Positions 21,754-39,793 of a stretch of DNA of 48,117 bases are shown in pieces (the first letter of the stretch is position 1; the number at the start of each line of letters is the position of its first letter). The DNA comes from Bacteroidales bacterium (GTDB taxonomy: Bacteria > Bacteroidota > Bacteroidia > Bacteroidales > UBA932): the NCBI GenBank assembly GCA_017447815.1, contig JAFSMS010000043.1, forward strand, positions 1 through 48,117. The letters run 5' to 3'. Both the position numbers and the translations under genes were made by a program. The notes under the pieces were generated by a model. It did not search any database and was not told the DNA's origin. It saw nothing but the letters and a program-made list of their open reading frames with translations.

Positions 21754-21796
21754 TGTCTTTTCCTTTATTGTTAAGTTATACATTCTTGGCTCACAA

Positions 21797-21829: not shown

Positions 21830-21846
21830 CACGAAATAGGGTTAAA

Positions 21847-24369
21847 ATGAACTTATCCAAGCTCAAATATCTGTTTCTGACGATATCGGCCCTCTGCTCT
21901 TTTTCAAGAATAGTGCCAGCCCAGACACAATTGCCGTCACTTCCTGTCGATTCTCGCATCCAGAAAGGGACGCTGGGCAGCGGCGTTACGTTTTATATGG
22001 TCACGAACCCCTCCGAGAAGGGGTATGCCGATATTGCCATCGTCCAGCGGGACGAACCCCTCTCCGCCGCCAAGCGGGAAGGGCTGAAGTCGGCCTTCCT
22101 GGGCAGGATGGAAATCGCTCCGGGCCCGGACGGTTTCCTCTCGGATGTGGACGGCTCCACCGTTTACCGTTTCGGCAGGGTGCCTTTTTACCGTCCCGAT
22201 GTGTTGGATTCCACCATGCTGTACACCTTTGCGCTGGTGGCGCAGTCCAAGGCCCAGCAGGCCGTCATCGTGAGCGGTGACATCGACGCGCCGGAACTCA
22301 GGAAGAAGATGGACATTTTTTCCATGTTGGTGCCCCGCATGCTGGTGAAGGAAAACCATCGGCCGGACTATGTGTGGGAGCCTTCGCCGGCGCCGTCCGT
22401 CCAGTTCCACGAAGGGAAGGAAGCGGAAGTCTCCGTCACGTATTCCAGTTCCCGCATTCCTTTTCCGTATATGAACACGGCGCAGGCCCTCGTGACCGAC
22501 CTTTTCGGACTCGAGTTCAAGGTCCTGCTTCAGCACCGGCTGGAACGGAATCTCCGCGAGGCCGGCATCGCCTACGGTGACATCTCTTTCCATGCGCTCC
22601 GCAGTGAAGACTACGGAGGCGACGAGCGTTACACCGTGCGGGTGACGGTGGCTCCGGACCAGCATAACGCCGCCATGCGCGTGATCTCCTTCACCCTGGC
22701 GGAGATGGATTCCCACGGCGTGGCCACCGATGAATTCGTGGAGGCCAAGAAGGTGCTTCTGCCTGCCATCCACCGCAAATCGGAGGGGATTCCGACACCT
22801 TCGGAATATGTCTCCCGCTGCATCGCCAACTTCCTGTACGGGGCCAACATGGCGCCCTATTCCGAGACGCTCCGCCTGTTTGCGCGCAAGAACGTGGCCG
22901 ACAGCACGGAAACCCGCCTGTTCAACAATTTCTCCGGCGCCCTGCTGGACCAACTCGGCAACCTCACGCTGGAATACACGGCGGCTCCGGATTCGCTGGA
23001 CAAGGATCAGGAACTCTTCTATTATAATCTCTCGTACCTTTACGGCTCGGTCATTCCCAGCGGGAACGATTATAGTTGGCGCGGGGCCGACACGCTGGGC
23101 TTCCATGCCGCCAGTTCCAAAGTCAAGATCAGGAGTGAGAAAAAAGAGCCTGTTACCGGCTCCACGCTCTGGACCTTCTCCAACGGGATGCGGGTGTGCT
23201 ACAAGGAGGTTCGCGGCAGCGGAATCTTCCACTATGCCCTTCAACTGAACGGCGGCCTGTCGCAGATTGAGGGTATCCGGGAAGGAGAGGGCGGATATAT
23301 CGGAGAATTGCTGCCCCTTTACGATGCGGCAGGGCTCCGTGCCTGGCATTTCCGCGAAGTGCTGGAGGCGGCGGGTATCAGCATGGACGCCCGGGTGGAC
23401 CTGAACGGCATGTCCATCCAGGGAGCGGCCCCTTCCCAGCAGTTCCCGCTGCTTCTGAAAGCCCTGCTGGAACTGGCCAACAACCGGACGCCCAACCGGA
23501 GTGAATTCGACGCCTATTGCCGCCGGGAGGGCGTGCGCGGGGTAAGCGTGCAAACCGAACTCGAAAAACGCCTTACGCCGGATTACAGTTTCGCCACCCG
23601 GAAAGACCCTTCCGTCCTGGGCCCCGAAACCTGGGAAAAGGCCGAGAAATACTTCGCCGCCCGTTTCTCCCGCATGAACGACGGCATCCTGATCATTGCC
23701 GGAGACTTGGAAACCGACGTGGTCAAGAGAATGCTGTGCCGCTATCTGGGCGGTTTCCGGGTGCTCAAAGGCACCACCCCCAGAAAGCAGGTCGATTACC
23801 GTCCCCGCAGCGGAACGGTCACCTTCATGGAAGAAGGAGGCCCTGAGCCGGGCATCCATATCCTCATGGATGCGGAGTATGCCATCACTTCCGACCATTA
23901 CTACACGGCCCGTATCGGCGCCGAGGCGCTTCGCCAGGAACTGGTCCGTCAACTTGCCGGCTACGGTTTCACCTGCGATGTGCGCGTGAGCGAGCAGCCG
24001 CAGCCGCAGGAGCGGTTCCAACTGTGGATAACCTGCCTTCCCGCTTCGCTTCAGGGGCTTCCGGCCGATGTGCAGGACGTATCGGCCGAAAGGGCCCTTT
24101 CCGCCGTGCGGAAGGCCATCCGGGAGGTGTCCAAGCGGGAGATCGCCCCGGCCGACCTGGCGCTCTGGAAGGCCCGGCTGGAGGGCGATGTGCGCAGCAA
24201 AGTGGCCAGCCCGTCAGGCTTTGTGCAAACGCTCTTCAACAGGTATGCCTTGAACAAGGATGTAACCAGCCGTTTCCATGAAAGCATTTCCGGAATCACG
24301 CAGGACAAAGTGAAGGCATTCCTCGGGACCATTGCAGCCGGCGGATGCATTGAATATGTCGTTTTATGA
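21847..24369 (+). CDS. M16 (insulinase)-family protein lacking the zinc motif
   Basis: An 840-residue exported protein with a signal peptide (about residues 1-27). Its opening, RIQKGTLGSGVTFYMVTNPSEKGYADIAIVQ, is the usual start of an M16 peptidase, and the later halves show M16 features (GSTLWTFSNGMRVCYKE, then LNGGLSQIEG, and DGILIIAGDLETDVVKRML). The HxxEH zinc-binding motif that should follow the N-terminal strands is absent: where it belongs the protein reads DEPLSAAKREGL. Related Bacteroidetes proteins also lack it. It is therefore probably a non-catalytic M16 protein, a chaperone-like or partner subunit by analogy with other inactive M16 subunits. It overlaps DUF3109 by 4 bases. Confidence 0.85.
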   Translation: MNLSKLKYLFLTISALCSFSRIVPAQTQLPSLPVDSRIQKGTLGSGVTFYMVTNPSEKGYADIAIVQRDEPLSAAKREGLKSAFLGRMEIAPGPDGFLSDVDGSTVYRFGRVPFYRPDVLDSTMLYTFALVAQSKAQQAVIVSGDIDAPELRKKMDIFSMLVPRMLVKENHRPDYVWEPSPAPSVQFHEGKEAEVSVTYSSSRIPFPYMNTAQALVTDLFGLEFKVLLQHRLERNLREAGIAYGDISFHALRSEDYGGDERYTVRVTVAPDQHNAAMRVISFTLAEMDSHGVATDEFVEAKKVLLPAIHRKSEGIPTPSEYVSRCIANFLYGANMAPYSETLRLFARKNVADSTETRLFNNFSGALLDQLGNLTLEYTAAPDSLDKDQELFYYNLSYLYGSVIPSGNDYSWRGADTLGFHAASSKVKIRSEKKEPVTGSTLWTFSNGMRVCYKEVRGSGIFHYALQLNGGLSQIEGIREGEGGYIGELLPLYDAAGLRAWHFREVLEAAGISMDARVDLNGMSIQGAAPSQQFPLLLKALLELANNRTPNRSEFDAYCRREGVRGVSVQTELEKRLTPDYSFATRKDPSVLGPETWEKAEKYFAARFSRMNDGILIIAGDLETDVVKRMLCRYLGGFRVLKGTTPRKQVDYRPRSGTVTFMEEGGPEPGIHILMDAEYAITSDHYYTARIGAEALRQELVRQLAGYGFTCDVRVSEQPQPQERFQLWITCLPASLQGLPADVQDVSAERALSAVRKAIREVSKREIAPADLALWKARLEGDVRSKVASPSGFVQTLFNRYALNKDVTSRFHESISGITQDKVKAFLGTIAAGGCIEYVVL

Positions 24370-24962
24370 GCAGGAATTCGGCATTCGGAACCCTTATCGA
24401 GATAGGTGACATCCTGGTTTCCGAGGATGTGGTCTTGGAATATTTCGCCTGTGACTATGCGGTCTGCAAGGGGAAGTGCTGCATCATCGGCGACAGCGGC
24501 GCGCCCCTGAAAGAAGAGGAACTGGAGCCCATCGAGGCCAATTACAAGGCATTCAGCCCCCTCATGCGGGCCGAGGGACGGGCCGCAGTAGCGGCCAAGG
24601 GTTTTTTCGAGATCGACCGTGACGGCGACCTGGTGACCCCGCTGGTGCCCGGAAGCGAGGAATGCGCCTATTGCCTTTTCGAGGGCGACAACTGCTTCTG
24701 CGCCATCGAACGCCAGTTCTGCAAAGGGCTGTCCTCATTCAAAAAGCCCATCTCCTGCTCCCTGTACCCCATCCGCGTAGTCGAATTGGGCGGGGGCCGA
24801 TTGGGCCTGAACCTCCATCGCTGGCATATCTGCAAGGAGGCCTATGAAAAAGGGCGCCGCGAAGGAATCCGGGTGTACCAGTTCCTCCGCGGGCCGCTCA
24901 CGGATGCCTTTGGCGAGGAGTTTTATTCGGCCTTGTCGGCCGCTGCCGGAATTGTTCGTTAA
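24366..24962 (+). CDS. DUF3109 cysteine-rich protein
   Basis: A 198-residue protein of the DUF3109 family, common in Bacteroidetes and of unknown function. It has many conserved cysteines: FACDYAVCKGKCCI near residues 28-40, then EECAYCLFEGDNCFCAIERQFC (about 97-118) and SCSLYPIRV. The pattern suggests a metal or iron-sulfur site and resembles YkgJ-type zinc/iron chelating proteins. It overlaps the M16-like gene by 4 bases. Its last ~33 codons are repeated, diverged, at 40077-40174, which marks the far end of the accessory block. Confidence 0.88.
   Translation: MSRNSAFGTLIEIGDILVSEDVVLEYFACDYAVCKGKCCIIGDSGAPLKEEELEPIEANYKAFSPLMRAEGRAAVAAKGFFEIDRDGDLVTPLVPGSEECAYCLFEGDNCFCAIERQFCKGLSSFKKPISCSLYPIRVVELGGGRLGLNLHRWHICKEAYEKGRREGIRVYQFLRGPLTDAFGEEFYSALSAAAGIVR
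24853..24950 (+). repeat. Left copy of the flanking direct repeat
   Basis: Ninety-eight bases at the 3' end of DUF3109 that recur at 40077-40174, ungapped, with about 17 mismatches (roughly 82% identity). On the minus strand the left copy still spells the end of the DUF2007 gene (codons for ADKAE and a stop at 24923-24925), although the rest of that gene is only on the right. The repeat is therefore a copy of the convergent DUF3109/DUF2007 3' junction. Confidence 0.85.
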
Positions 24963-25053
24963 TTCCTTCCTCTCCCCGGCCTTGGTCCACTAAAGTCACA
25001 AAATAGTATTTTTCCTCTTTTTCCTATTTTGATTCCTATTTGCGTTCTGATTT

Positions 25054-25083
25054 TTTTCGGAATTCCTTCCGGCGTTCCGAAAA
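25054..25083 (+). terminator. Inverted repeat after DUF3109, possible terminator
   Basis: TTTTCGGAA (25054-25062) and TTCCGAAAA (25075-25083) pair perfectly around 12 bases, in the 195-base gap between DUF3109 and the RHS gene. There is a T-run on one side and an A-run on the other. The rest of the gap shows no gene and no convincing promoter for the RHS gene. Confidence 0.4.
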
Positions 25084-25157: not shown

Positions 25158-28100
25158 ATGAAAAACTATTTCAAGAAAATCCTGGTAGCCACGGTGCTAG
25201 GCATCGTGTCATCAGGTCTCCGGGCCCAAAGCCTGGAGCCGTACAACCCTTATTCCTCCGTTTCTCCTTCCGTAGAGACTTATTCGATGACGAAGTTCGG
25301 AGGGCTTTCTCCTTCGCTCTATACCGGAGCGATGACGTACTCTGTTCCTATTTTCACCTATTCGGATCCGGACTTCACCCTGCCGATAAGCCTGGAGTAC
25401 AATTTCGACGGGTTCCGCCCTTCGCAGCACTCCGGAACAATCGGATATGGATGGCATCTCGAATGCGGTGGCGCCATCACGCGGGAGGTGCGCGGACTTG
25501 CCGATGATGATGTTTACTACGGCCCCGCCGACAGACCTCAGTACGGTTATTGGTGGTCTGTCCAGGATGGCTTTTCTTCCGTGTCTGACACTTTTGACTC
25601 CGATGCCTATTGGGGAACCTTCTGCAATACCATGAGTACGCCCACTCCGACTCCGGAGATGGCTCGGAAAATCAACCCTTTCAGTCAAATCCCCATTCAA
25701 ATTAATGCTCAGATTCAAAATGGGACACTTGTCATTCTAGATAATAAATGTTATGATATGGTTCCAGACATCTACCATTTCAGTTTCCTGGGCCATCACG
25801 GGGATTTCATGCTGATGTCCGACGGGTCATTCAGGGTTTTCAACTCTGACCTGTCTTCAGGAGAAGTTGACATTGAGTTCCTTGCCCCGACGGGAATCCG
25901 TTACCCGGGCTATATCAACACCCCGGGGTTCGTCATTACTCTGGGCGATGGGATGAAATACACTTTCGGAGGTTCGGTCGCAGGAATCGAGTATAGCAGC
26001 TCTTACAACACCGCCAGCCAGTCAACATCTTCTCTCTCCGGATCGGCCACCGCATTCCGCCTTGTCAGGATAGAAGCGCCAAACGGGCGGTACATCAACC
26101 TGAATTATTCTTATAACAAGCAGGCAAGCCACAGACCGGAACTGTATTATTCCCTGGCCTATAGTGACGGATTCACCCAGGCATCCCAGCAGTACCAGGC
26201 CTATAACTCCGTGTATTTCTCCGTTTTGGAGTCCATTTCCGTAGGGACCAGACAGGTGGTATCATTCAGCTATTCGGCAAAGACCAGCGATGAGAATGCT
26301 TCCACCTGGTTTGATTCAGCCTATGCCGAGGCCCCTACTACTCCATCCGGCATAAACAAGGCTGCATCCAGTTTGATGCTCACCGGTATAACTGTTACCA
26401 ATGAAGATAACGATACCGTAGAAAACGCGGTCTTCACCCAATCATTTGCGTCATCGGGAACGCCCAAGATGTTCCTGGACACAGTCACTACTATGCATGG
26501 AGGGAAGCACTCGTTTGACTATAATGTGTCCGGTGTTTACTTTCCGCATAACGATACCCGCAGCACGGATCACTGGGGGTGGTGGAACGGACAGACCGCC
26601 CAGGATATCAGGAATATCGTCACTTTCAGCGGAAGCCGGTACAACCAGATTAGTGGTAACTCCAAAAATCCTTCATTCAACAAGTCTTACGCAGGAGCAC
26701 TTACCAAGATTACCTATCCGACTGGCGGGACGACCTCAATAGAATACGAAGGAAACGAGGCTGAGGAATGCCTCGATGAGGAAGGAGTGATTTACACTCC
26801 GAATTCCGGTTCTTTCGCAGTTGGCGGTGTGCGGGTCAAGAAGCTTTTGGATAAGGAATCAACTACTGCGACCGCAAAGGAAACCACCTATACCTATGAT
26901 GACGGTTTTCTTTTTCACATGCCAAGATATTGCATGCAGGTTCCCATCTCCTATATTTGTCTGATTACCGGGAACACGTCTTCCATTTCTTTCACCGCGA
27001 CAGCATATAATAGCGACAGCAACTACAGCGTATGCCGGGACGGCATAATCGGCTATGGAACAGTTACTTCAACGAGTCCCGATGGCTCGAAGACGGTAAC
27101 ACTGTTCAGTTCATATTCCGGCACCAACGCCGATTCTTACCAGGACGGTGGAACATATGATCTCATAACTAAAAGAGGCGTTATAAGCCATAACGACTTG
27201 ATTGACTGCGGTAGTGAAACCGGTGGTGGCGTATATATCGCCATGCCCATCTCGGACAGGAAGAACATGAGAGGCCTGCCGCTTACCGTCAGCGTGTACC
27301 ACTCCAACAATTCCTTGAGAAAAAAGACGGAATACACTTATTCAAGCGACGTGGTCGGATTGAATTGGATTTACTACAACAATCTGGACTCCTTTGTCCG
27401 GACCCCGTGGGAGTGCAAAAGCCCCCTTCTTCTCACCGAGACCGTCAAGGATTATACAAGCGACGGCACTTATCGTACAACCGTTCACTCCTTTGAAAGA
27501 AACACTTCCGGTCAGGTAATAAAGGAGACTTTCAGCAGTTCGAACTGCCCTGGAGATGTGATCAAGTTGTACAGGAAATACTATCATGAGTCTGGAGAGT
27601 CTGGTGCGTCAGCAGCACTAAAAGGAGCCATCCATTCGATAGCCCGGACCAGGACCTCCGGCGGGACCGAGTATCTGACGGATGGAGAAAAATACGCCTA
27701 TTCTTCGCCATCCGTACACATCAAGCCGTCATCTGTAACAAACTACGCCTTCAATACGCCACTAGGAATTTCTTCTTCCAGTTCTGCCCTGAATGCCATA
27801 ACCCAGGGGACGGCCACCGTAACAAACTTCCAGTACAGCACTTCGACATACTATTTGACCAGGATTGATCGCCCCGGCGGCGGTTGGACAACTTGTTCTT
27901 GGAACGGTACACATCTGGTGTCCCGTACTGACAATGCTTCGGGGAATGTCACATCTTTTACCTGGAAGGATCTTGTCGGTCTCTCCAGCGTGACATATCC
28001 TTCCGGTATGTCTGAAACATATCAGTACGACTCCAACAACAGATTGTACAGGATTCTCGATTCGGATGGCAACCCTGTCACGCAATACCAGTATAATCTT

Positions 28101-31100
28101 GCCGCAGCTCCGACCGGAGTCACGGGATTGACATCAACCCAAAGTTTCATTCTGCAAACCACATTCCTGTCTTCTGGCGCCGCTACTTCCCTGAAGGATG
28201 TGACTTATTACGACGGGTTGGGGTATCCCAATCAGATGAACGCGATGGGGGCCAGCCCGCTTGGGCGAAGCATCGTCACTCCTATCGTCTATGACAACAT
28301 GAGAAGAGGTGATGCAACATCCTACCTTCCGTACACCCTTTCTTCCGCTGCCGCCACATACATCTCGAATCCGTTCTCTGACCAAGCCACTTTCCATTCA
28401 AGCTGGAATCAGGACTCCAGAGCCTTTTCGGTGAAAGAGTATGAGACGTCTTATCTTGGCAGACCAGTATCCTTCCAGAAAGAAGGGACGCAATGGAACA
28501 ATGGTGGAGGGCATAAGATATCGATGTCTTACAGGGGGTATTCCGCTGCCAATGACAATATCATGAAGTTCTCTTTCCTCCCCGGGACTTCGCCCAAGGC
28601 GGTCTATTCTTCCTCCAACCAATACGCCAACGGCGACCTCCAGGTCACGACCACAATTGACGAAGAGGGGGACATGGTCAGTGTTTTCACCGACTCTTGG
28701 GGCAGGGATGTCTGCGTCAGAAAGGTCAACGGTTCCATCAAAGCCGACACCTACAGCGTATATGACCTGCGTGACAGCCTCGTGCTGGTTATCCAGCCGG
28801 AGGGTGCCGCAGCACTTGCCGGCAGAACCAACAGGACCATAACCCTTGTTGACAATGCATCAGCCGCAAACAATGACATCTACAAGGATTACTGCTTCAG
28901 CTGGAACTATGACGGTTGGGGTGGGCTCATCGAAAAACACACTCCCGGTTGCGGAATCGAGGAATACGCCTATGATGCAAGGGGCCGCGAGGTGCTTATG
29001 ACCAACTCCCTGATGAGTCCTTCCGGAACCACCGTCAACAGGCTCCGCTTTACCGTCTATGACAGTTGTGACAGGTTAACGGGAGTCAGATACGTCAACA
29101 GTACTTCCAAACTGGCGGCACTAAGATCTTTGACCAGAGGCTCTACCGCAAGCACCTTGCCCGTTACAATTACGAGCAAATTCACGATCTTGTGTACGGC
29201 CTTGACCAGAGAGTATTTCCCGTTCACTTCTTTTACTTACCCGAGCACCTTTGTGGCGGATGCAAACGTGGTTGCTGCTACCGATGTCAACAAGACCAAG
29301 GTCAGGGGTATGCTCAAAAGCGAGACGGTCTATCCGGCACCCAATGCCGATGGCTCCGCTCCGTCATCGTCCTCTCCCACATTGACAAGGGGTTACCATT
29401 ACGACTCCAAGGGAAGGGCGATACAGGTCATCGAATCTTTCTCCGACAATCATGCTGTCCGGTATTCGACGATGTACAACTTTGCCGGGGATGTCATGGC
29501 AAAGAAGGAAACCCACTCCGGGGCCGTTTCCACTTACATTATCACTACTTACACCCGCGACAACCGAGGCCGGACATTGTCTGCAGCAAGGAATGTCGGA
29601 GGAACGGTCATGGCCCCCGTTACATATGCTTACGATGAACTGGGCAGGCTCCTTTCCATGTCAATCGGGTCTTCTGCATCCCAATCCTTGAAGTATGACA
29701 TCCATAATTGGACATTATCCCTATCCGCTTCCATCAGTGGCTCTCCGGTTTTCAGCGATACGCTACGTTATGCCAGCGCTTTGAAGGAGACCTCCGCGGC
29801 ACGGTTTGACGGCAACATTTCGGAGATTCGGGTCATTCATAACGGCATTTCCGATAACACCTATGCCTATCAATACGATGGTCTGAAGAGACTGACCGGA
29901 GCGAACAGGTACATCGGATCTGCCACCACCAGTTCTGCTACCCGCACGGAAAAGGATATGGCATATGACCGTAACGGCAACCTTACTGCGCTTAAGCGCT
30001 ATGGGGACACCGGTCTCGAGAACAATCTTTCTTTCACTCACTCGGGAAATAGAATGACGGGGCTGTCCGATGCCGGTTCTTCTGGAGGAAACTTCACTTT
30101 TGCCTATGATGCCCTGGGCAATATGACCCAAGACGGCCGAAAAGGTTTGGTTTTCTCGTACAATATTCTTAACTTGCCGAGGGAAGTGACCTCAGGCGCT
30201 TCCGGCTCATTGACATATACCTATCTGTCGGACGGAACCAAGGTGTCGGCCATCAAGTCTGACGGGTCCGGGGAGCGTTACATCGGCTCATTCGTGTATA
30301 CTGTCCCTTCTAGCGGCAGTGAGACCTTGGAAAGCGCAGCCTGGGACGAGGGCCGGATTACCTTTACAAAGTCAGGTTCCACGTACACCAAGACGGACCT
30401 TTGGTTCGTGAGGGACCATTTGGGGAACGTGAGGACGGTGGTGAACATCACTCCAGACCTAAGTGCTCCACTGGTGGTTGAGAGGAATGACTATCTTCCT
30501 TTCGGCACCAGGATAAGCGCCGGCACCGCAGTTCTTGCCTCGAACCGCTTCCGTCTTGGAGGCAAGGAGAGCCAGACCTTCGGCAGCCTTGACCTCGGCA
30601 AAGTGGACTTCGGTGCCAGAATGTATGACCCGTTCGTAGCAGGTTGGACGACCGCGGATCCGATGGCGGCGAAGTATCAGAAACTAAGTCCGTATGCATT
30701 TTGTGATAATAACCCAATTAATATAATCGATGCTCAAGGAGATAGTCTGATATTAGATATTCATGGCGGAATACTTCGTGAAGAAGGAGGTAATAATCAT
30801 GTTTATTATCAAAATGGGAACGACCTTGTATTCATCGGGGAGTTAGGTGGTATGATAAATGTTTCGGTTATTTTTAGTAATCTACTCAAAAAGAATATCG
30901 ATTACGCAGAGAAAATACATAACCCAATGACGTTAATTAATTTGGTTAAGCCAAAAGGTCCTTGGGATTATAAGAATCGGATGGGGACAATATGGGGAAG
31001 AGCTAATTATACAAGAAATACCGAATTCTCTTTTATGGGGACTATTATGAGTCCTGATGACATAGGAAATTTCCATTTCGGCGCCGTTTCGAAAGCAACT

Positions 31101-31310
31101 GGCATGATTCCTGAAGAATTGGGGTTATTCGGTGCCGGGATTGTCCAAGTTCTTTCTGGGACGTCTAGAAAAGAATTTATAAATCTTGTCATCCTGCCAA
31201 ACCCATTATGTGCTGGATTTTATATTCAAGTAAAAAGGCCCTATGGAGATGACCCTAAAGATCAAGAACAAATACTAAAGGGATATGAGTATTACAAAAA
31301 CAAAAGATAA
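25158..31310 (+). CDS. RHS/YD-repeat polymorphic toxin with toxin-44-like tip
   Basis: A 2050-residue exported protein. A Sec signal peptide (residues 1-24, ending GLRAQ) leads into a Bacteroidetes-type N-terminal region (TYSVPIFTYSDPDFTLPISLEYNFDG and similar), then YD repeats across about residues 930-1750, such as YDSNNRLYRILDSDGNPVTQYQYN. The RHS core ends at about 1800-1865 with FGARMYDPFVAGWTTADPM and SPYAFCDNNPINIIDAQG, the cleavage-site motif. The last ~183 residues form the variable tip, in visibly AT-richer DNA. The tip carries KPKGPWDYKN and DDIGNFHFGAVSKATG, which resemble the bacterial toxin 44 family (predicted RNase). The shell would encapsulate the tip for delivery to rival cells. 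The next gene, overlapping by 26 bases, is the expected immunity gene. Confidence 0.88.
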   Translation: MKNYFKKILVATVLGIVSSGLRAQSLEPYNPYSSVSPSVETYSMTKFGGLSPSLYTGAMTYSVPIFTYSDPDFTLPISLEYNFDGFRPSQHSGTIGYGWHLECGGAITREVRGLADDDVYYGPADRPQYGYWWSVQDGFSSVSDTFDSDAYWGTFCNTMSTPTPTPEMARKINPFSQIPIQINAQIQNGTLVILDNKCYDMVPDIYHFSFLGHHGDFMLMSDGSFRVFNSDLSSGEVDIEFLAPTGIRYPGYINTPGFVITLGDGMKYTFGGSVAGIEYSSSYNTASQSTSSLSGSATAFRLVRIEAPNGRYINLNYSYNKQASHRPELYYSLAYSDGFTQASQQYQAYNSVYFSVLESISVGTRQVVSFSYSAKTSDENASTWFDSAYAEAPTTPSGINKAASSLMLTGITVTNEDNDTVENAVFTQSFASSGTPKMFLDTVTTMHGGKHSFDYNVSGVYFPHNDTRSTDHWGWWNGQTAQDIRNIVTFSGSRYNQISGNSKNPSFNKSYAGALTKITYPTGGTTSIEYEGNEAEECLDEEGVIYTPNSGSFAVGGVRVKKLLDKESTTATAKETTYTYDDGFLFHMPRYCMQVPISYICLITGNTSSISFTATAYNSDSNYSVCRDGIIGYGTVTSTSPDGSKTVTLFSSYSGTNADSYQDGGTYDLITKRGVISHNDLIDCGSETGGGVYIAMPISDRKNMRGLPLTVSVYHSNNSLRKKTEYTYSSDVVGLNWIYYNNLDSFVRTPWECKSPLLLTETVKDYTSDGTYRTTVHSFERNTSGQVIKETFSSSNCPGDVIKLYRKYYHESGESGASAALKGAIHSIARTRTSGGTEYLTDGEKYAYSSPSVHIKPSSVTNYAFNTPLGISSSSSALNAITQGTATVTNFQYSTSTYYLTRIDRPGGGWTTCSWNGTHLVSRTDNASGNVTSFTWKDLVGLSSVTYPSGMSETYQYDSNNRLYRILDSDGNPVTQYQYNLAAAPTGVTGLTSTQSFILQTTFLSSGAATSLKDVTYYDGLGYPNQMNAMGASPLGRSIVTPIVYDNMRRGDATSYLPYTLSSAAATYISNPFSDQATFHSSWNQDSRAFSVKEYETSYLGRPVSFQKEGTQWNNGGGHKISMSYRGYSAANDNIMKFSFLPGTSPKAVYSSSNQYANGDLQVTTTIDEEGDMVSVFTDSWGRDVCVRKVNGSIKADTYSVYDLRDSLVLVIQPEGAAALAGRTNRTITLVDNASAANNDIYKDYCFSWNYDGWGGLIEKHTPGCGIEEYAYDARGREVLMTNSLMSPSGTTVNRLRFTVYDSCDRLTGVRYVNSTSKLAALRSLTRGSTASTLPVTITSKFTILCTALTREYFPFTSFTYPSTFVADANVVAATDVNKTKVRGMLKSETVYPAPNADGSAPSSSSPTLTRGYHYDSKGRAIQVIESFSDNHAVRYSTMYNFAGDVMAKKETHSGAVSTYIITTYTRDNRGRTLSAARNVGGTVMAPVTYAYDELGRLLSMSIGSSASQSLKYDIHNWTLSLSASISGSPVFSDTLRYASALKETSAARFDGNISEIRVIHNGISDNTYAYQYDGLKRLTGANRYIGSATTSSATRTEKDMAYDRNGNLTALKRYGDTGLENNLSFTHSGNRMTGLSDAGSSGGNFTFAYDALGNMTQDGRKGLVFSYNILNLPREVTSGASGSLTYTYLSDGTKVSAIKSDGSGERYIGSFVYTVPSSGSETLESAAWDEGRITFTKSGSTYTKTDLWFVRDHLGNVRTVVNITPDLSAPLVVERNDYLPFGTRISAGTAVLASNRFRLGGKESQTFGSLDLGKVDFGARMYDPFVAGWTTADPMAAKYQKLSPYAFCDNNPINIIDAQGDSLILDIHGGILREEGGNNHVYYQNGNDLVFIGELGGMINVSVIFSNLLKKNIDYAEKIHNPMTLINLVKPKGPWDYKNRMGTIWGRANYTRNTEFSFMGTIMSPDDIGNFHFGAVSKATGMIPEELGLFGAGIVQVLSGTSRKEFINLVILPNPLCAGFYIQVKRPYGDDPKDQEQILKGYEYYKNKR

Positions 31311-31626
31311 GAATATAACAATTAGTCGCTTTTTCTACATTGTTATGATTATTGTCTTAGCTTTGGTTTTATTGATTTGGATGCTTGGGCGCACCTTTAT
31401 TGAAACAGAGACAGTGTTGAAAATGAACTACCAGGCGGATAAAATTAAGGTTACGAGAGTATATACTCCTTTTGATAAAACAACTCTTAAGATCAGAATA
31501 AATGGAGATAACCATGTTGTCTCAACGGCAAGAATACCTGAAGGTTTCACTATTAATCAGGATAAGTTTATCATTTATTTTGATAGTAAGAATAATGCGG
31601 ATTCCCTATCTTTCCATCTCCATTAA
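31285..31626 (+). CDS. Small membrane protein, probable immunity protein for the RHS toxin
   Basis: A 113-residue protein with one strong membrane helix (about residues 14-36) and a small beta-rich domain of about 70 residues after it. I do not recognise its family. Its start lies inside the end of the RHS gene (26-base overlap), it is AT-rich like the toxin tip, and it directly follows the tip. That is the standard position of a cognate immunity gene. Membrane location would suit neutralising a toxin as it enters, but this is inference. Confidence 0.7.
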   Translation: MSITKTKDKNITISRFFYIVMIIVLALVLLIWMLGRTFIETETVLKMNYQADKIKVTRVYTPFDKTTLKIRINGDNHVVSTARIPEGFTINQDKFIIYFDSKNNADSLSFHLH

Positions 31627-31669
31627 CAATGCGGTGTCAAGCGTCGTGAGTATTATGAATTAAGCAAGT

Positions 31670-31736
31670 TTGCTGTGGTGGCGCCTAGGTTTCTCTGTCG
31701 CCACCATCTTTTTAATTGCGCACGCCACCACAGCAA
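31670..31736. repeat. Inverted repeat between the first cassette and the RHS remnant
   Basis: TTGCTGTGGTGGCG (31670-31683) and CGCCACCACAGCAA (31723-31736) are perfect 14-bp inverted repeats. A third partial copy, GTCGCCACCA (31697-31706), can pair with the left arm instead. It marks the border between the first immunity gene and foreign DNA. No transposase is near, so it may be a terminator or the scar of an element. Confidence 0.6.
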
Positions 31737-31925
31737 GCATACGAAGAGGTACGCAAAAAAAGAGAATTGTGGTCCAGAGATCGATATTTCTTGCCCGGGG
31801 CCTTAAAACGGGCACGGATACTTGCAAAGTCATTTGACTTCTTCGGATCAATCTCGCGGTATTTTTGCATATCCTGGTCTATCTTCTTTGCATCGCCCGC
31901 CTTAGGACAAACGGCTGAAACAATC
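31712..31925 (-). pseudogene. Unidentified minus-strand coding fragment
   Basis: On the minus strand this stretch reads as a plausible protein C-terminus: KAGDAKKIDQDMQKYREIDP, then KKSNDFASIRARFKAPGKKY and RSLDHNSLFLRTSSYACCGG, ending in a stop at 31712-31714. Its charged, protein-like composition differs from the RHS-derived sequence that abuts it on the opposite strand at about 31930. There is no start and nothing of the rest of the gene. I do not recognise it. It looks like a piece of another gene joined to the RHS remnant by recombination. Confidence 0.4.
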
Positions 31926-31929
31926 CTTG

Positions 31930-32466
31930 GGGACACAGGTATTGGGAATAACCTTTCTTTCACCCGGTCGGGCAACAGGTTGACCGGACTGTCCGATACC
32001 GGTTCTCCGGGAGGGACCTTCACGTTTGCCTATGACGCGCTGGGTAACCTTGCCAGTGATGGTCGCAAAGGTTTGGTTTTCTCCTACAATGTTTGTAACT
32101 TGCTCAGGGAAGTGACCTCGAGCGCTTCCGGCTCATTGACATATACCTATCTGTCGGACGGCACAAACACTGCGCTTCAGTTTAGAAACAGGGATTATTA
32201 TGGTGGCACTCTCAGTGCAGTGGGCGTGCTCCCTTATTTGGGGGAGCTTGCCAAAGTTGGGAGGATTGGAAGAACCGTTAGGGAGAAAGGGGATAAACGT
32301 CCATGATCCCAAGTATGGCAGATGGGTTAATCATTCAAAGCACAATAAAACTGCACAACGTTATAACCAGGATTTTGAACATTTTTTGAAGAGCAATGAG
32401 TTCGTGTCAGAGAAGGATATAGTTAATTATGCAGAATCATTAATGAATAAATATGGCTTGTACTGA
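31930..32466 (+). pseudogene. Orphan RHS core fragment with frameshifted second toxin tip
   Basis: The first part repeats the intact RHS gene at about 30005-30240: LSFTRSGNRLTGLSDTG and then DGRKGLVFSYN and GSLTYTYLSDGT match it closely. The sequence then departs into a different tip (GGTLSAVGVLPYLGELAKVG). At a GGGG run near 32290 the frame shifts by one base; the second frame continues with GINVHDPKYGRWVNHSKHNK and ends at 32466 in AESLMNKYGLY. The HDPKYG...W...H pattern resembles the C-terminal toxin domains that pair with Imm11-type immunity proteins. It has no start or signal peptide, so it is a silent, broken toxin cassette unless recombined back. Its stop overlaps the next gene by 14 bases. 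Confidence 0.75.
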
Positions 32467-33070
32467 TTTCTATCGTTTTCGGAGTCGCGCATATGGAACG
32501 ACTTTTACCGCTAGGCCTGATATCTTTGAAAAGGCACTGAAAGAAGGGAGAAATGATTTTGATCTCCACTGTCACAAGTTTCTTTTCCATGGAGATTATG
32601 AATACTATCGCTTCCCTATTATTTTTCATCAGTATGATGGGAAATACCTCAGAGATTTCCTCGACTTGGGGGATCCTCCTGTTTATCTGGTGTCAAATAG
32701 AGTCATTGAACTTCTTAGAGAGAATACTATAACAGGATGGAAGAACTATCCAATCTCTCTTTTTGATAAAAAAGGGAATGTTATCGAGGGCTATTCTGGC
32801 TTTTCTGTAATTGGAGAAGGAGGAAAATTTACTCAATTTTGGGATTATGGATACATTCCGGAATCAAACAAAAGCTATATCAGACGTCGTGGCATTTATG
32901 ACATAAGTCAATGGGATGGGTCTGATATCTTTTTGGTTCATAATTACATTGTGATTACGGAACGTGTGATGGAATTGATGAAATCAATAAAAGTCACAGC
33001 TGTTGAATATGAAAGGCTCTCTGATGATACTGACATAATAGGTGAGCCTCGATTCTCGCTCAAATTGTGA
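32453..33070 (+). CDS. Imm11-like (DUF1629) immunity protein
   Basis: A 205-residue cytoplasmic protein without membrane segments. The middle has the pattern YLRDFLDLGDPPVYLVSNRVIELLRENTITGWKNYPISLFDKKG, which is the hallmark of Imm11/DUF1629 immunity proteins (a strand, S-x-R-V, then L-x-x-x-x-I-T-G and P-I). The C-terminal half, with SQWDGSDIFLVHNYIVITERVMELMKSIKVTAVEYE, also fits. It overlaps the second toxin tip by 14 bases and would be its antidote. It appears intact although its toxin is broken, as expected if it still protects against kin toxins. Confidence 0.75.
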   Translation: MACTDFYRFRSRAYGTTFTARPDIFEKALKEGRNDFDLHCHKFLFHGDYEYYRFPIIFHQYDGKYLRDFLDLGDPPVYLVSNRVIELLRENTITGWKNYPISLFDKKGNVIEGYSGFSVIGEGGKFTQFWDYGYIPESNKSYIRRRGIYDISQWDGSDIFLVHNYIVITERVMELMKSIKVTAVEYERLSDDTDIIGEPRFSLKL

Positions 33071-33190
33071 AATCATTTAAATGCGGTGGTGGCTGGAGAG
33101 GAAGGATATGATATTGAGTATAACCCTAAATTCGTAGCCTTCTACAAATTCTTGAATAACCTTGTTCCAACCTCGAAAGGCCAAATATAA
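33071..33190 (+). pseudogene. Remnant of a third toxin tip
   Basis: After a stop at 33068-33070 there is a short open stretch with no start codon that reads NHLNAVVAGEEGYDIEYNPK, then FVAFYKFLNNLVPTSKGQI and a stop at 33188-33190. It looks like the last ~40 residues of a protein, not random sequence. The DUF3997-like gene follows 32 bases later, the same tip-then-antidote order seen twice upstream. I do not recognise the toxin family. Confidence 0.5.
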
Positions 33191-33222
33191 TTGCGGATAT
33201 AGTTACATTTATCATTAAAAAG

Positions 33223-33663
33223 ATGAGTGGAAAAACGAAAGTTGTGCTAATTGCCGTCGTATGTATTCTCTTGGTGATGGTGTTTTTGTGTCATACTGTA
33301 TTCAGTACTGCATTACGCGTAGGCATCAGGATGGATGATAGCTTTAGTTTGGGGGATAAGTATCGTTATAGTCGAGATAGCCCGCAAGTGATTGTTGATA
33401 ACGAGAATACTGTAATTGTAGAAGGCTATTTGCTTTCATACGGATTCGATGATAATTTCGTTATTGCGCTTATGCAAGATCATCAGACGAGAGATTCAGT
33501 TTATTGGATTATTACGAAGAAAGATAATGAATGTCTTGCCTTTGCTGATTCAGCATTGTTTCTTGATGCAATGAATGATCATGGAATTAATCTTTCTCTC
33601 AAGGAGTTTCCAAGATATTATAAGAATTTAGGTTCAAGAGAATTATGGCATCGCCGTAAATAA
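33223..33663 (+). CDS. DUF3997-like membrane-anchored protein, candidate immunity
   Basis: A 146-residue protein with an N-terminal membrane helix or uncleaved signal (about residues 5-28). The exported part has YLLSYGFDDNFVIALMQD and later SVYWIITKKDNE, the order of motifs of the DUF3997 family as I know it. That family has no proven function but is often next to polymorphic toxin tips. It stands between two toxin-tip remnants, so I infer it is an orphan immunity gene. The DNA is clearly AT-richer than the core genome. Confidence 0.6.
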   Translation: MSGKTKVVLIAVVCILLVMVFLCHTVFSTALRVGIRMDDSFSLGDKYRYSRDSPQVIVDNENTVIVEGYLLSYGFDDNFVIALMQDHQTRDSVYWIITKKDNECLAFADSALFLDAMNDHGINLSLKEFPRYYKNLGSRELWHRRK

Positions 33664-33667
33664 ATAG

Positions 33668-33745
33668 GAATATCGAAATCCAGATAATTATCACCCACAA
33701 TCTCGTAATTCAAATAGAAGTAGAAAGTATGAGCAAGACCAATAA
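33668..33745 (+). pseudogene. Remnant of a fourth toxin tip
   Basis: A 25-codon stretch without a start, EYRNPDNYHPQSRNSNRSRK then YEQDQ and a stop at 33743-33745. The Arg/Asn/Ser-rich tail is like the basic C-terminal ends of many RHS nuclease tips. It overlaps the start of the ankyrin gene by 17 bases, the same arrangement as the other tip/antidote pairs. It is short, so it could be chance. Confidence 0.4.
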
Positions 33746-34259
33746 TAATGCTTTATGGAATGCTATAACGAAAGATGATTATAATGATTATCTCTCTGCC
33801 ATTTCAGATGCAGACATCAATGAGGAGATCGACTCGGCTAACCTTTTAGAAATTGCCATTTCATATGGCGCAAACGATATTGCTTTAAATCTTATCTCCC
33901 GGGGGATAGATATTAATCATCGTGGCAAGAATGGGATGACACCTCTTCATGTTTGTGCATGGTACTACAATCAATATGATTGTATTGAATTAGCAAAATC
34001 ATTAGTTTCACTGAGCAAGAATATCGATGTGACGGATGATTATGGAAACACCCCACTTTGGTATGCTACTCACTTCTCCTCTTTATTAAAATATAAAGAC
34101 AATCCTTCAAGATATGATCTTGTTAAGCTTCTCGTTTCCAAGGGCGCCGATCCGTTACATCCCAACAAGGTTAATCGTTCACCTTATGACTTTGCGACTA
34201 TTCATGAGGATCCCATATTGCTCCGTTTGCTTGGGATAGATTGTAAAACTGAAGAGTAA
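33729..34259 (+). CDS. Ankyrin-repeat protein, candidate immunity
   Basis: A 176-residue cytoplasmic protein with three to four ankyrin repeats: ISYGANDIALNLISRGIDIN, NGMTPLHVCAWYYNQYDCIE, YGNTPLWYATHF and VKLLVSKGADPLHPNKVNRSPYDFA. Ankyrin proteins are a recognised class of immunity protein in polymorphic toxin loci, where they bind the toxin directly. It is the last gene of the plus-strand array and is followed by a strong terminator. Its assignment as an antidote rests on position. Confidence 0.75.
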   Translation: MSKTNNNALWNAITKDDYNDYLSAISDADINEEIDSANLLEIAISYGANDIALNLISRGIDINHRGKNGMTPLHVCAWYYNQYDCIELAKSLVSLSKNIDVTDDYGNTPLWYATHFSSLLKYKDNPSRYDLVKLLVSKGADPLHPNKVNRSPYDFATIHEDPILLRLLGIDCKTEE

Positions 34260-34281: not shown

Positions 34282-34320
34282 GCACCGCGATTCCAATATG
34301 GGGGGCGCGGTGCCTTTTTT
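34282..34320 (+). terminator. Intrinsic terminator closing the toxin/immunity array
   Basis: GCACCGCG (34282-34289) pairs with CGCGGTGC (34306-34313) and is followed by a run of T. Just beyond it GGTCAC...GTGACC (34322-34343) forms a second small inverted repeat. Confidence 0.85.
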
Positions 34321-34396: not shown

Positions 34397-34948
34397 TTAA
34401 AAATGTTTCCATTTTTCAGGCTGCCTATTAAAAGAAGATATGTCTTTTTTTTGGTACTTTCTCAAATCTTCTTTACAAAATAGATAAACGGTTCCGGCTT
34501 CGTTATCATTTACAACTCCGCCTACAATTTCGGGGAGATCAGAATAGCGATAGTCTATGTTGTTGTATTTCTCTAAAACTTCAAACAAATCCTTTGATAC
34601 TGTTTGCGAAGGATCGTTCCAATAAAATAACTTCCCTTCCACTTCGATAAAACTTGTCGGGAAAAATGGATCATAAGACCCTATTCGAGTATTTAATGAA
34701 GGGCGCGCATCGTCATCTGCTACTTTAATTGTCACCATGATAGCACTATCCGATAGTTGATCAGAAAACAATACCATAAACACACTATCCTTGCTGCTCC
34801 ATTTGGAAGTATTCACAAAATCCAAAATGGCATTAGTTATCGCCGCGTTTGAGCCTCCCTGACGAAGCAGCGAGTTGTTCCATTTATTGATGGAACAACT
34901 CGCTGCTCCTAAAAAGAGTAGAAGGCACAAAAAAGTATATGTTTTCAT
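34397..34948 (-). CDS. Lipoprotein of unknown function
   Basis: A 183-residue protein with a clear lipoprotein signal (MKTYTFLCLLLFLGAASC, Cys at residue 18). An in-frame Met three codons earlier (34957) is an equally possible start. The mature domain alternates strands and helices (DSAIMVTIKVADDDARPSLN, FIEVEGKLFYWND, GTVYLFCKEDL) and I do not recognise it. It is AT-rich like the toxin array. A short coding remnant on the same strand ends 25 bases upstream, so this may be an immunity lipoprotein of a cassette in the opposite direction. Confidence 0.7.
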   Translation of the reverse strand: MKTYTFLCLLLFLGAASCSINKWNNSLLRQGGSNAAITNAILDFVNTSKWSSKDSVFMVLFSDQLSDSAIMVTIKVADDDARPSLNTRIGSYDPFFPTSFIEVEGKLFYWNDPSQTVSKDLFEVLEKYNNIDYRYSDLPEIVGGVVNDNEAGTVYLFCKEDLRKYQKKDISSFNRQPEKWKHF

Positions 34949-34972
34949 CTCTTTCATAAAACAGTATCTGAA

Positions 34973-35107: not shown

Positions 35108-35148
35108 GAAAACTTACCTCATAGGGCATGACCCCCGCGAAGGAATCG

Positions 35149-38100
35149 TTAATGCACGAAGACCCTGCCTTCGGGAAGGGCTTTTTCGTCGGCATTCTTT
35201 CCCAGCCATACCTCAAACCATCCCTCCTCGACACCGAAGTGCAAGTCTTTGTCCCACATGCCGAAGCGCCGGTAAGGTACCTCGATCTCCACTTCCTTGC
35301 TTTCGCCGGGCTTCAGCGAAACCCGCTTGAAAGCGGCGAGTTCCTTCATGGGACGGACAACGGAGGCGAGCTGGTCATGGATATAAACCTGAACCACTTC
35401 GTCGCCCTCTACATCCCCCGTGTTCTTCACGGTGACGGTTACCTTCAGGGCTTCGTCTTTCCCAAGCTGCTCGGGAATGCGTAAGTTGCTGTATTCAAAG
35501 GAGGTATAACTTAAACCGTAGCCGAAGGGATAGAGCGGCTTCCCGTCGTTTTCAATGTAGCCGTACCCGCGTCCGCTGGGCTTGATTGCATAGTACATCG
35601 GCGTCTGGCCGATATCCTTGGACCAACTGACGGGCAGGCGTCCTCCGGGGGTCACGGCGCCGGTGATCACATCGGCGATAGCCCTTCCGCCCTGCTCTCC
35701 GGGATACCAGGCTTCAAGGACGGCGGCCGCGCCATCCACCCAGTCGGTGATGTCGATGATGCCTCCGTTCTGCAGGACGACGATCACGGGTTTCCCGGTG
35801 GCGATCAGGTCTCTGACCAGCTTCTCCTGGTCAATCGTAATGGTCTGGTCCTGCTGGGCATCCACGACCAGTCCGCCGCTCTCATCCCGGTCACGGACCT
35901 TCGTGGAAGGGAGTTTGAAACTGCTCCGGTCGCGGCCTTCATCCTCGATGATCGAAGGGAAGAAAAGCAGTGCGTCGCAGGTGGCCGCCAGTGCCCTGAC
36001 ATTCTTTCCGCCTTTGTCCAGGACAACTTGGGCAGACCCTTCAAAAGCCTTCCGGAGACCATCCAGCGGTGTCACGCCGTCTCCTTCCCAGCGTCCTCCG
36101 GGACGTCTGTAATTGCCAAGGCTCAAGTCGTCGGCGGCAGGGCCGAAAACACCTATCTTCTTGACACTTCCCGGTTTAAGGGGAAGCGTTCCGTCGTTCT
36201 TGAGCAGCGTCATGACCTTGCAGGCAGCCTCATAAGCAAGTTGCTGATGCTCCTCGGTGTGGACGATGGAAGCCGCCTTGTCTGGATCCACGTAGGGATC
36301 GTCGAAGAGCCCGAGTTCGAACTTCAGGCGCAGGACCCGGCGCACAGCCTCGTCCAGGGTCTTCCCGCTCACCTTCCCTTCCTGTACAAGGTCCAGAAGG
36401 CCGAGGGACGTGATATGCAGTTCCACGTCAAGACCGTTTTCCATGCAGAGGGCGAGCGCCTCGTCCTCCGTTTCCGCCAGACCGTGATGGCGTCGGACGA
36501 TGTCCACGGCGTCATAGTCGGTGACCACGATTCCCTTGAATCCCCATTCTTTCTTGAGGATGTCGTTGAGCAGCACACCGTTGCAACTGGAGGGAACACC
36601 GTCCACCGAGTTGTAGGACGACATGATTCCCCGGGCGCCTCCTTCCTGAACGCATGCCCTGAACGGTTCCAGATAGACTTCCCGGAGCACCCTCCAGGAG
36701 TTGGTGGAGGCGTAGGAATCACGGCCTCCTTCGCCGTAATTGTCCACATAGTGCTTGGGAGTGGTGACGATGCCTCCCTGTTCCAGGGCCTTCACGAAAG
36801 CCACGCCCATCGCGGAATTCAGCAGCACATCCTCCCCATATCCTTCCTGGGTTCTGCCCCAACGCGGGTCCCTGGAGATGTTGACCACGGGCGACAAAAC
36901 CTGTCGCACGCCCACTGCCCTGACCTCCTTGGCAATCACCTGGGCGACGCGGTTGTAGAACGCATCGTCGAAAGTGGCGGCCATCGCTATGCTCTGGGGG
37001 AAACTGGTGGCTTTGCCCCACATCGCCCCGTGAAGGGCCTCGCAGTGTTGCAGCACGGGGATTCCCCAGCGGTTCGAAAGGATGGAAAGGCGGGTGTCCT
37101 CGTTGATGACCTCGGCCACCGATTTGGGATCGTTCGGAAGGTTCCAACTCGGGAAGAAATGAACAAGGGTACGGACGAGTCCCTTGGTATAGTCCCTCTT
37201 GTCCCATTCATCGACATTGACAAGTTCGGCGCTGACCTGGCTCACTTTCTCTTCCAGGGACATCCTGCCAAGCAGGTCCTCCACCCTTTTCTCCACGGGC
37301 TGGTTCTTGTCCCGGTACAGGAAGTTCCCCTCCTCGAAGACCGGGCCGTTCCCCAGGTCAAGGCTGTATTTGCCCGGGCCGAGGTTCCTGATATAATCCG
37401 CCCAGGGGATGTTGACGTGGGCCAGAGAACCTTCCGGCACCTCGACATCCATGTGGATGGCTTTCCCGTTGCGCTTGAAGGACACCGCCACCGTTCCCTT
37501 GACGGTGGGGAAGGAAAGGCTGCACTCGTTGAAGATATGCTTGTCGGGGGAGATCGAGAACCTTCTCCAACCGGCCTGGATCGGCACGATGCCGAACATT
37601 TTCGCCGGCAGCACGGCCAGGGGACCGCCGCTCCAGGCGTGGTTCACGCTTCCGCAGTTCCAGTCGCCGTCCACGCCCACGTTCCAGCCTTCGAACAAGG
37701 TGTCGTAGTCGGGATGGTTGACCATGAAATCGTACCGCTTGCGCTCGCGCTCCAGGGCATAGTCGCCATGTCCCATGCGGAACAGGGCTTCCATCACATA
37801 TTTCTCCATGTAGGGGCTGGCATGCTCCTCTTTCTTGAGGACCTCGAAAATCGCGTCATACTTGTCTTTCCACGCGATTTCGGCCACCACCGCGAGCGCC
37901 TGCACCCGGTCGTCTGTCTCGCCCTTGTAGTCCGGGTGGCGGTAGCAGGTGCCGGTCCAGGCGACCCGGTTGATTGCGTCCTTGAGCCGGTTCATGCGCC
38001 CACGGTAAACCCTGCCGGTGACAATCTCGCCCAGCATGTCTTCCATGTTCGTAACCGACTGGAGGGCAAGGATGTACCACATGTTCTGAAGCAGGCGCAT

Positions 38101-39641: not shown

Positions 39642-39654
39642 ATTCTCTGCAAGT

Positions 39655-39793
39655 TAAGAACATTGTACGAGAAAACCAAACCTTTGCGGCCGTCTTGGGT
39701 CAGATTGACCAAGGTGTCATAGTGGAACGTGAGGGGGCCTCAAGAAGAACCGGCATCGGACAGCCCCGTCATTCTGTTTCCCGAATCCGGGGA
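39655..39793 (-). pseudogene. Inverted RHS core fragment
   Basis: The minus strand here matches the intact RHS gene at about 30046-30172: GGGAAACAGAATGACGGGGC, then GATGCCGGTTCTTCT and GACCCAAGACGGCCG, with near-identical runs. It has internal differences that break the frame (TTCTTGAGG where the intact gene has TTCTGGAGG). It is the piece of a second RHS gene in the opposite direction, with both ends lost. Confidence 0.8.

What the first reader, a model, noticed from the sequence alone, without database searches (positions are those of the whole stretch)
25158..34259. RHS toxin followed by a row of displaced toxin tips, each with its own antidote
Seen: one intact RHS gene with a toxin-44-like tip and overlapping small gene, then an orphan RHS-core piece with another tip followed by an Imm11-like gene, a short tip tail followed by a DUF3997-like gene, and another tail followed by an ankyrin gene. 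The whole row is AT-richer than the core genome. Established: RHS loci swap tips through their conserved core and keep old tip/immunity pairs downstream. Inference: this is a four-layer archive of past toxins, with immunity genes kept while toxins decayed.
Basis: partly seen in the sequence, partly recalled or inferred. Interest (0 to 1): 0.82.

Follow-up and report, generated by a model that had tools for sequence, protein, structure and literature searches.

The report
RHS toxin island hoarding old antidotes
A gut-type bacterium carries a large contact-toxin gene followed by the remains of an earlier toxin end and several antidote-type genes, and in relatives some of these displaced modules begin at one sharply defined short DNA sequence hidden inside the toxin gene, which may be where the ends are swapped.

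Summary
Partly confirmed. The window holds a 10.2-kb AT-rich island: an intact RHS gene with an Ntox44 tip, an overlapping small gene, then displaced material. Layer 2 is confirmed: a dead AHH-nuclease tip beside an intact Imm11-family gene; the same pair ends RHS ORFs in G003 and G215 and an RHS core at a contig edge in G091. Layer 3 was misread: the 'tip tail' at 33094-33190 is the C-terminus of an immunity-type lipoprotein, whole elsewhere in this genome, with relatives directly behind RHS tips in G112 and G119. The next gene has relatives in a row of small genes bearing an RHS scar. Layer 4 (ankyrin) is untested: no relative found. A further lipoprotein gene (34397-34957, minus) belongs to the row. 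A near relative (G150) lacks the island.

It is the exact left border of 10 of 31 element-bearing core fragments; 6 of these 10 follow directly on a strong hairpin. Published RHS core fragments have variable length. I propose a cassette border; the mechanism is unproven.

The parts
25158..31310 (+). Intact RHS/YD polymorphic toxin gene, 2050 aa, with DUF6443 and RHS core and a C-terminal Ntox44 tip
   Evidence: core relatives in 28 of 61 genomes, own included
30147..30177 (+). 31-nt element inside the RHS core (TTG-N10-ACAAT-N5-TAACTTGC), silent-site constrained; left border of some orphan fragments in relatives
30933..31301 (+). Ntox44 toxin domain of the attached tip
   Evidence: Pfam PF15607 E 3.2e-15
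31285..31626 (+). 113-aa membrane-type ORF overlapping the tip, presumed immunity gene of the attached tip (no relative in 249 other genus genomes)
   Evidence: position only
31675..31707 (+). Terminator-like hairpin followed by a T run, after the presumed immunity gene
   Evidence: fold z -3.9; not listed by the simple terminator scan
31787..31927 (-). 3' scrap of a 272-aa gene of unknown function that lies beside the RHS array of G107
   Evidence: tblastn 53% over 47 aa, E 5e-9
31928..32167 (+). Displaced RHS core fragment with its own copy of the element (32073-32103)
   Evidence: 82% to 30002-30241; element copy
32160..32466 (+). Decayed tip of the AHH-nuclease type: pretoxin piece and toxin C-terminus in two frames; the stretch holding the AHH motif in intact relatives is absent
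32453..33070 (+). Intact Imm11-family immunity gene, 205 aa
   Evidence: 67% to the gene beside the tip of G003; 94% to G178; Imm11 hits in 5 of 7 alignment members
33094..33190 (+). 3' remnant of an immunity-type lipoprotein gene (not a toxin tail)
   Evidence: 94.6% DNA identity over 92 bp to L083 8371-8462 and L115 6374-6283
33223..33663 (+). 146-aa membrane-anchored orphan, immunity-type by context
   Evidence: 35-37% relatives in G107 and G117 beside a 32-bp RHS scar
33668..33745 (+). 25-codon open frame overlapping the ankyrin gene start; possible toxin tail, unsupported
   Evidence: no relative among fetched loci
33729..34259 (+). 176-aa ankyrin-repeat gene, possible immunity gene
   Evidence: Pfam Ank_2 4e-19; no relative in 249 other genus genomes, none confirmed in a scan of genome contigs
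34282..34313 (+). Terminator-like hairpin with T run after the ankyrin gene
   Evidence: fold z -2.8; not listed by the simple terminator scan
34397..34957 (-). 186-aa lipoprotein, immunity-type by context, inverted at the end of the row
   Evidence: relative in G094 directly before an RHS core fragment with tip
39649..39791 (-). Isolated RHS core scrap upstream of a glycosidase gene, shared with G150
   Evidence: 87% identity over 140 bp to the intact core, 77% to the displaced copy; G150 counterpart

Best explanation
The island is an RHS polymorphic-toxin locus that has been re-tipped. New tip-plus-immunity modules join the conserved RHS core, and older modules are pushed downstream. The displaced toxin has lost pieces and frame, while most small genes of the row stay open, so the cell carries an Ntox44 weapon plus a partial stock of old antidotes (Imm11 type, a broken lipoprotein with a whole copy elsewhere, a 146-aa membrane protein, an inverted lipoprotein, and perhaps an ankyrin protein). 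Shown: anatomy, loss of the AHH stretch, the same pair at the end of RHS ORFs in relatives, absence of the island in G150. Inferred: that the small genes neutralise the named toxins and still protect. Also inferred: in this genus some displaced modules begin at one 31-nt element inside the RHS core, directly after a hairpin or another foreign neighbour, so one exchanged unit may be element - core tail - tip - immunity gene - hairpin.
For: Layer 2 pair at the end of RHS ORFs in G003 and G215 and behind a core at a contig edge in G091:C32, with AHH and Imm11 family matches. Lipoprotein family directly behind RHS tips in G112 (core at contig edge) and G119 (short, frame-broken core piece), 2 of the 6 genomes that have it out of 151 searched. 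Scar beside the relatives of the 146-aa gene. Lipoprotein 34397-34957: relative directly before an RHS core fragment in G094. G150 aligns to both flanks (window 20001-24956 at 88%, 35148-39810 at 98%) but lacks the 10.2 kb between, holding about 320 bp with an inverted core scrap. G107:C32 and C14 show such series: RHS core end at the contig edge with tip, small gene, join, core fragment plus second tip in one open frame, small gene. Composition.
Against: No relative of the 113-aa gene or the ankyrin gene was found (250 genomes each, own included), so their pairing is by position only. The toxin tail of layer 2 also has a low dN/dS, so retention of immunity by selection is not shown. One immunity-type gene of the row (33094-33190) has itself decayed. 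Some relatives of the small genes lie with no RHS core match in the fetched stretch (G091:C13 and C17, G072, G150:C148). In G003 the RHS region is in two ORFs. The assembly is a draft of 118 contigs, 86% complete.
Confidence: 0.8

Rival explanations
1. The small genes were captured one by one as an acquired-immunity island (orphan immunity, as described for gut Bacteroidales), and the RHS pieces are incidental.
For: Relatives of the Imm11, lipoprotein and 146-aa genes occur without RHS genes beside them in G091:C13, G091:C17, G072, G150:C148 and G107/G117; one lipoprotein family sits at the presumed lysS site in G000 and G150.
Against: Layer 2 keeps an RHS core fragment and its own toxin remains; G178 keeps RHS leader, core scrap and toxin tail beside the gene; the G107/G117 cluster keeps the RHS scar.
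Confidence: 0.15
2. The 31-nt element is only a well-conserved stretch used in ordinary homologous recombination; shared left borders descend from a few old joins.
For: 21 of 31 element-bearing fragments have core-like sequence left of the element, up to about 310 nt; hairpins in G107/G117 share a stem and may descend from one join; recombination through circular intermediates is the published model for RHS (PMC2935791, passages read).
Against: Conservation falls on particular silent bases while amino acids inside the element vary; left neighbours differ in G191, G178 and G150.
Confidence: 0.5
3. The element is an internal promoter for the downstream immunity gene, kept in scars because it drives orphan immunity genes.
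For: TTG, 20 nt, then TAACTTG resembles the -33 and -7 layout of Bacteroidota promoters (consensus recalled); TTG-to-TAnnTTTG distances of 19-21 are among the commonest in these loci, though counts are small.
Against: TAnnTTTG is enriched upstream of ORFs (69 of 292, 21 expected) but TAnnTTG is not (54, 66 expected); some scars precede no gene on their strand nearby (L073@4499, L071@7160).
Confidence: 0.1

Closest known systems
C-terminal displacement of RHS tips in Enterobacteria (Jackson 2009, PMC2935791; passages read)
   Same: Intact RHS gene followed by GC-poor strings of dissociated core/tip pieces; circular intermediates proposed.
   Different: There core fragments are described as of variable length set by the breakpoint; here 10 of 31 element-bearing fragments share one left border at a silent-site-conserved element, the others vary.
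Orphan rhs toxin/immunity pair of Salmonella LT2 (Koskiniemi 2014, PMC3967940; passages read)
   Same: Displaced tip with immunity gene downstream of the main rhs and sharing a stretch of core (522 bp there).
   Different: There the orphan toxin is functional and can be fused to the main gene; in the window the one recognised displaced toxin is broken.
Immunity-gene arrays of Vibrio cholerae T6SS clusters (Kirchberger 2017, PMC5361080; abstract and two sections read)
   Same: Effectors replaced, old immunity genes retained in a row.
   Different: Recombination there was not confined to specific sites; different delivery system.
Polymorphic toxin cassettes and polyimmunity loci (Zhang 2012, PMC3482391; passages read)
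   Same: Tox-AHH listed with Imm11 and ankyrin-type immunity; strings of immunity genes read as relics of tip replacement.
   Different: Immunity genes in polyimmunity loci are said never to be interrupted by toxin genes or cassettes; here a toxin remnant lies among them.

Membership tests
RHS polymorphic toxin | Long ORF with RHS/YD repeats and RHS-associated core before a variable C-terminal tip | tested here: met
   PF05593, DUF6443, TIGR03696
Ntox44 toxin | Match above Pfam's gathering score at the C-terminus | tested here: met
   56.8 bits against a cut-off of 24
Ntox44 toxin | Toxic activity blocked by the overlapping 113-aa gene | not testable with these tools
   No assay; no relative in 249 other genus genomes
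AHH nuclease (layer 2) | AHH motif and family match | tested here: not met
   Relatives: L103 reaches PF14412 above cut-off (25.5 against 22.3), L105 below it (18.6), L042 shows the motif without a PF14412 match. The window copy lacks the motif stretch: a dead relative, not a working member
Imm11 immunity family | Profile match | tested here: met
   5 of 7 alignment members match PF07791; the window protein belongs only through them, it has no match itself
Displaced RHS tip array | Displaced tip is the attached tip in a relative | tested here: met
   Layer 2 only: G215 and G003 ORFs, G091:C32 at a contig edge
Displaced RHS tip array | Layer 3 tail is a toxin tail | tested here: not met
   It is the remnant of an immunity-type lipoprotein gene
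Displaced RHS tip array | Layer 4 tail is a toxin tail with an ankyrin immunity gene | tested here: inconclusive
   No relative of either
Site-specific cassette system (integron-like) | Defined recombination site at cassette borders | tested here: inconclusive
   Shared left border in 10 of 31 fragments and silent-site constraint; no right-border site shown
Site-specific cassette system (integron-like) | Linked recombinase | not tested
   Neighbours were not screened for recombinases; an integrase-like ORF (by eye) was seen beside one RHS array, of the class without the element (L105)
Bacteroidota promoter | -7 box TAnnTTTG (recalled consensus, enriched here) | tested here: not met
   Element has TAACTTG

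The most novel reading that the evidence does not exclude
In this bacterial genus a 31-nt sequence hidden in the coding region of a subset of RHS genes is a dedicated exchange site. Tip-immunity cassettes, running from this site to the hairpin behind the immunity gene, are inserted at the same site in the RHS gene, in frame, by a recombinase or another site-directed process, pushing the old cassette downstream: an integron-like system whose attachment site is part of the toxin's own reading frame.
Probability: 0.2. Interest if true: 0.8.

Novelty: new variant of a known kind. Interest (0 to 1): 0.53.

Why it matters
RHS loci swap toxin ends, but how the exchanged DNA is cut and joined is unsettled; the 2009 model left open how circular intermediates arise. 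A silent-site-constrained element that marks the start of a good part of the displaced modules gives a concrete sequence to test. The island also shows that a short tail in such a row can be the remnant of an immunity gene and need not be a toxin tail, which matters for counting toxin archives.

Tried and rejected
Internal-promoter reading of the element: weakened (and scars that precede no gene). DUF3997 for the 146-aa gene: no Pfam or NCBIfam support. Toxin-tail reading of 33094-33190: rejected. Purifying selection on immunity after toxin death: dN/dS of the Imm11 gene between window and G178 is 0.16 (20 synonymous, 13 nonsynonymous changes), but the neighbouring dead-toxin tail is more diverged at both kinds of site (14.5 of 28.5 synonymous, 13.5 of 130.5 nonsynonymous), so its ratio is low too and most change may predate decay. 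Lipoprotein dN/dS 0.25 rests on six changes. Ankyrin gene: no relative in 249 other genus genomes, none confirmed in genome contigs. RHS core scan of genome contigs gave 3 loci, a Prevotellaceae MAG and Thermoflexibacter ruber, 30-39% alike. Solved structures: nothing significant for the Imm11 alignment or the Ntox44 tip. Structure prediction could not be run.

Caveats on the element. The thinned sets were defined by codons inside the element (TTG at 1664 and AAC at 1672; AAC at 1672 and TTG or TTA at 1673); only the other codons are independent evidence. Among 26 cores matched on both sides of the element (25 from protein searches plus the window's own) 5 have the full element and 21 do not. 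A first count of left borders took only the 15 fragments closest to the window's core (9 of 15 at the element); on checking, all 34 distinct element instances were measured: 3 in long RHS ORFs, 31 in fragments, 10 of the 31 beginning at the element (L072@5395 was placed by DNA as because tblastn joined an RHS 5' piece, and L170@1157 and L085@862, 0 by tblastn, were placed by eye as core-like). Where cores are diverged, tblastn may lose the true border. The 10 are not all independent: two share upstream sequence, and the G107/G117 hairpins share a stem. The binomial value rests on the first count, on independence and on a uniform 300-nt null, and I do not use it. In one search only two candidates per genome were scored, so fragments are undercounted.

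Slips: one search gave no matches because of a slicing error, redone; two element patterns had a wrong gap and matched nothing, the third counted 3 in the window; the border measure failed (an invalid option gave zeros) and was redone.

Full report
Setting. The window is contig C27 of a draft genome of 2.51 Mb in 118 contigs. No name is given; the nearest named RHS relatives found are a Prevotellaceae MAG and Thermoflexibacter, and ORFs in the fetched loci carry the TAnnTTTG promoter box upstream, so I infer a Bacteroidota bacterium, probably Bacteroidales.

The observation. The RHS gene 25158-31310 is intact and ends in Ntox44. The 113-aa ORF 31285-31626 overlaps its end and is followed by a terminator-like hairpin (z -3.9; the simple terminator scan did not list it). 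A second core copy, 31928-32167, is 82% identical to 30002-30241. Tip and small genes have GC 0.32-0.38 and the core copy 0.53, against 0.59-0.60 in the flanks. In G150 both flanks align at 88-98% but the 10.2 kb between window 24956 and 35148 are missing; about 320 bp stand there, with an inverted core scrap. The row is therefore an island that a near relative lacks.

Layer 2. The tip remains lie in two frames. An intact version ends a 2073-aa RHS ORF in G215 and a 1234-aa RHS ORF in G003 (which follows a separate 997-aa RHS ORF), and stands behind an RHS core at a contig edge in G091:C32; each is followed by a relative of the window's 205-aa gene (41%, 67%, 40%). The intact versions carry an AHH motif; L103 (G091) reaches Pfam AHH above its cut-off, L105 (G215) stays below it and L042 (G003) has only a weak DUF2380 match. 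The window copy lacks that stretch. Members of the 205-aa family match Imm11 in 5 of 7 cases. Of 250 genus genomes, own included, 6 have the gene. In G178 a 94% identical gene stands behind a differently deleted RHS gene: leader, a 5' piece, a 47-bp core scrap, toxin tail, immunity gene. Two genomes thus lost the toxin in different ways and have the gene open.

Layer 3. The piece 33094-33185 matches the 3' end of a 176-aa lipoprotein gene at 94.6% DNA identity, in contig C9 of this genome and in G150. Members of this family stand directly behind RHS tips in G112 (core at the contig edge) and G119 (short, frame-broken core piece), and without RHS matches beside them in G150:C148, G091:C17 and G072; 6 of 151 genomes, own included, have it. 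In C9 the gene follows a core scrap and a DMP19-family gene. So the 'tail' is the rest of an immunity-type gene. The following 146-aa gene has relatives in 2 further genomes of 250. In both, the relative lies in a row of small membrane and lipoprotein genes, with no RHS gene or tip in the fetched stretch but a 32-bp RHS scar directly behind it.

Layer 4 and beyond. The ankyrin gene has no relative in 249 other genus genomes. The 25-codon frame before it has none among fetched loci. The inverted lipoprotein gene 34397-34957 has a relative in G094 that stands directly before an RHS core fragment with a tip; 3 of 41 chosen genomes, own included, gave a match.

The border element. A search of 400 genus genomes with 259 bp of core DNA found 14 with matches, two candidates scored per genome. 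Looking at DNA around these hits, I saw that 9 of the 15 orphan fragments closest to the window's core begin at the same 1-3 bases, equivalent to window 30145-30147, while six begin elsewhere, the two in the window among them. Measured over all 34 distinct element instances in the fetched loci, 3 lie in long RHS ORFs and 31 in fragments; 10 of the 31 begin at the element and 21 have core-like sequence to its left, from a few codons to about 310 nt. So the sharp border is a common case, not the rule. Six of the ten follow directly on a strong hairpin (fold z -4.0 to -7.2) and a seventh on a doubtful one (-1.1); the other three follow a gene fragment (G150), an RHS 5' piece and other sequence (both G178). 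Of ten flanks with core-like sequence none folds with z below -1.5; two fragments with another border also follow hairpins, one strong (-4.6), one weak (-1.7). A pattern search found the element in 9 of 260 genomes, 18 matches, with 0 for the reversed control pattern in each listed row.

Silent-site constraint. Among 16 RHS cores less than 80% alike that carry TTG at residue 1664 and AAC at 1672, the codons not used to choose them are also nearly fixed: AAT 16 of 16 at 1669, CTT 12 of 12 at 1671, TTG 15 of 16 at 1673; conserved residues elsewhere mostly vary in codon, with a few exceptions such as 1753 and 1796. In a set of 12 less than 70% alike (pairwise 19-65%, mostly 30-55%), codon identity where residues agree is 0.81 inside and 0.45 outside, with 0.41 expected from codon usage. 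Codons inside that set's own definition inflate the inside figure; the independent columns 1664 and 1671 give 0.83 and 0.80 against 0.24 expected. Among 26 cores matched on both sides and chosen without regard to codons, 5 have the full element: it marks a subset of RHS genes.

Reading. Known RHS displacement explains the island. A left border shared to the base by a third of the fragments is not expected from that model, in which core fragments are described as of variable length (PMC2935791, passages read), and recombination in Vibrio T6SS clusters was not confined to specific sites (PMC5361080). Either the element is a true exchange site, or a few old joins have been copied around by homologous recombination. 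I hold the second more likely. A search of the held papers for Rhs with synonymous or recombination-site terms returned none with four of five terms; an earlier one for site-specific toxin cassettes listed 14, of which I saw only the listing apart from papers cited here.

Noticed in passing
window 31787-31927 (-) and 39593-39646 (-); L083 8457-8624; L073 2687-4456: Scraps of two unknown genes (272 and 291 aa, whole beside the RHS array of G107:C32, no Pfam or PADLOC match) lie beside RHS scraps at three places of this genome.
   Followed up: partly
window 39800-40060; L083 8640-8777; L115 5855-6094: Tandem repeats of about 51 bp stand beside RHS scraps in the window; related repeats (about 71-81% alike) stand beside the lipoprotein gene on contig C9 and at the corresponding site in G150.
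   Followed up: no
window 24848-24947 and 40071-40171; L071 6805-6904, 7165-7229 and 11903-12002: The 3' end of the gene upstream of the RHS gene is repeated beside RHS core scraps, as if a longer segment had been copied and inverted.
   Followed up: partly
L072, L083 and L115 beside a gene I take for lysS; L069 beside a gene I take for argS (names recalled): Shrunken RHS loci or orphan immunity-type genes sit next to aminoacyl-tRNA synthetase genes in G178, G000, G150 and G146; G178 and G146 keep the RHS leader sequence (window 25015-25072).
   Followed up: partly
L072 6275-7729: A HipB/HipA-like toxin-antitoxin set (names recalled) follows the orphan Imm11 gene in G178.
   Followed up: no
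L004 738-1517: A DMP19-family gene (E 5.8e-17) whose last codons run into an RHS core scrap.
   Followed up: no
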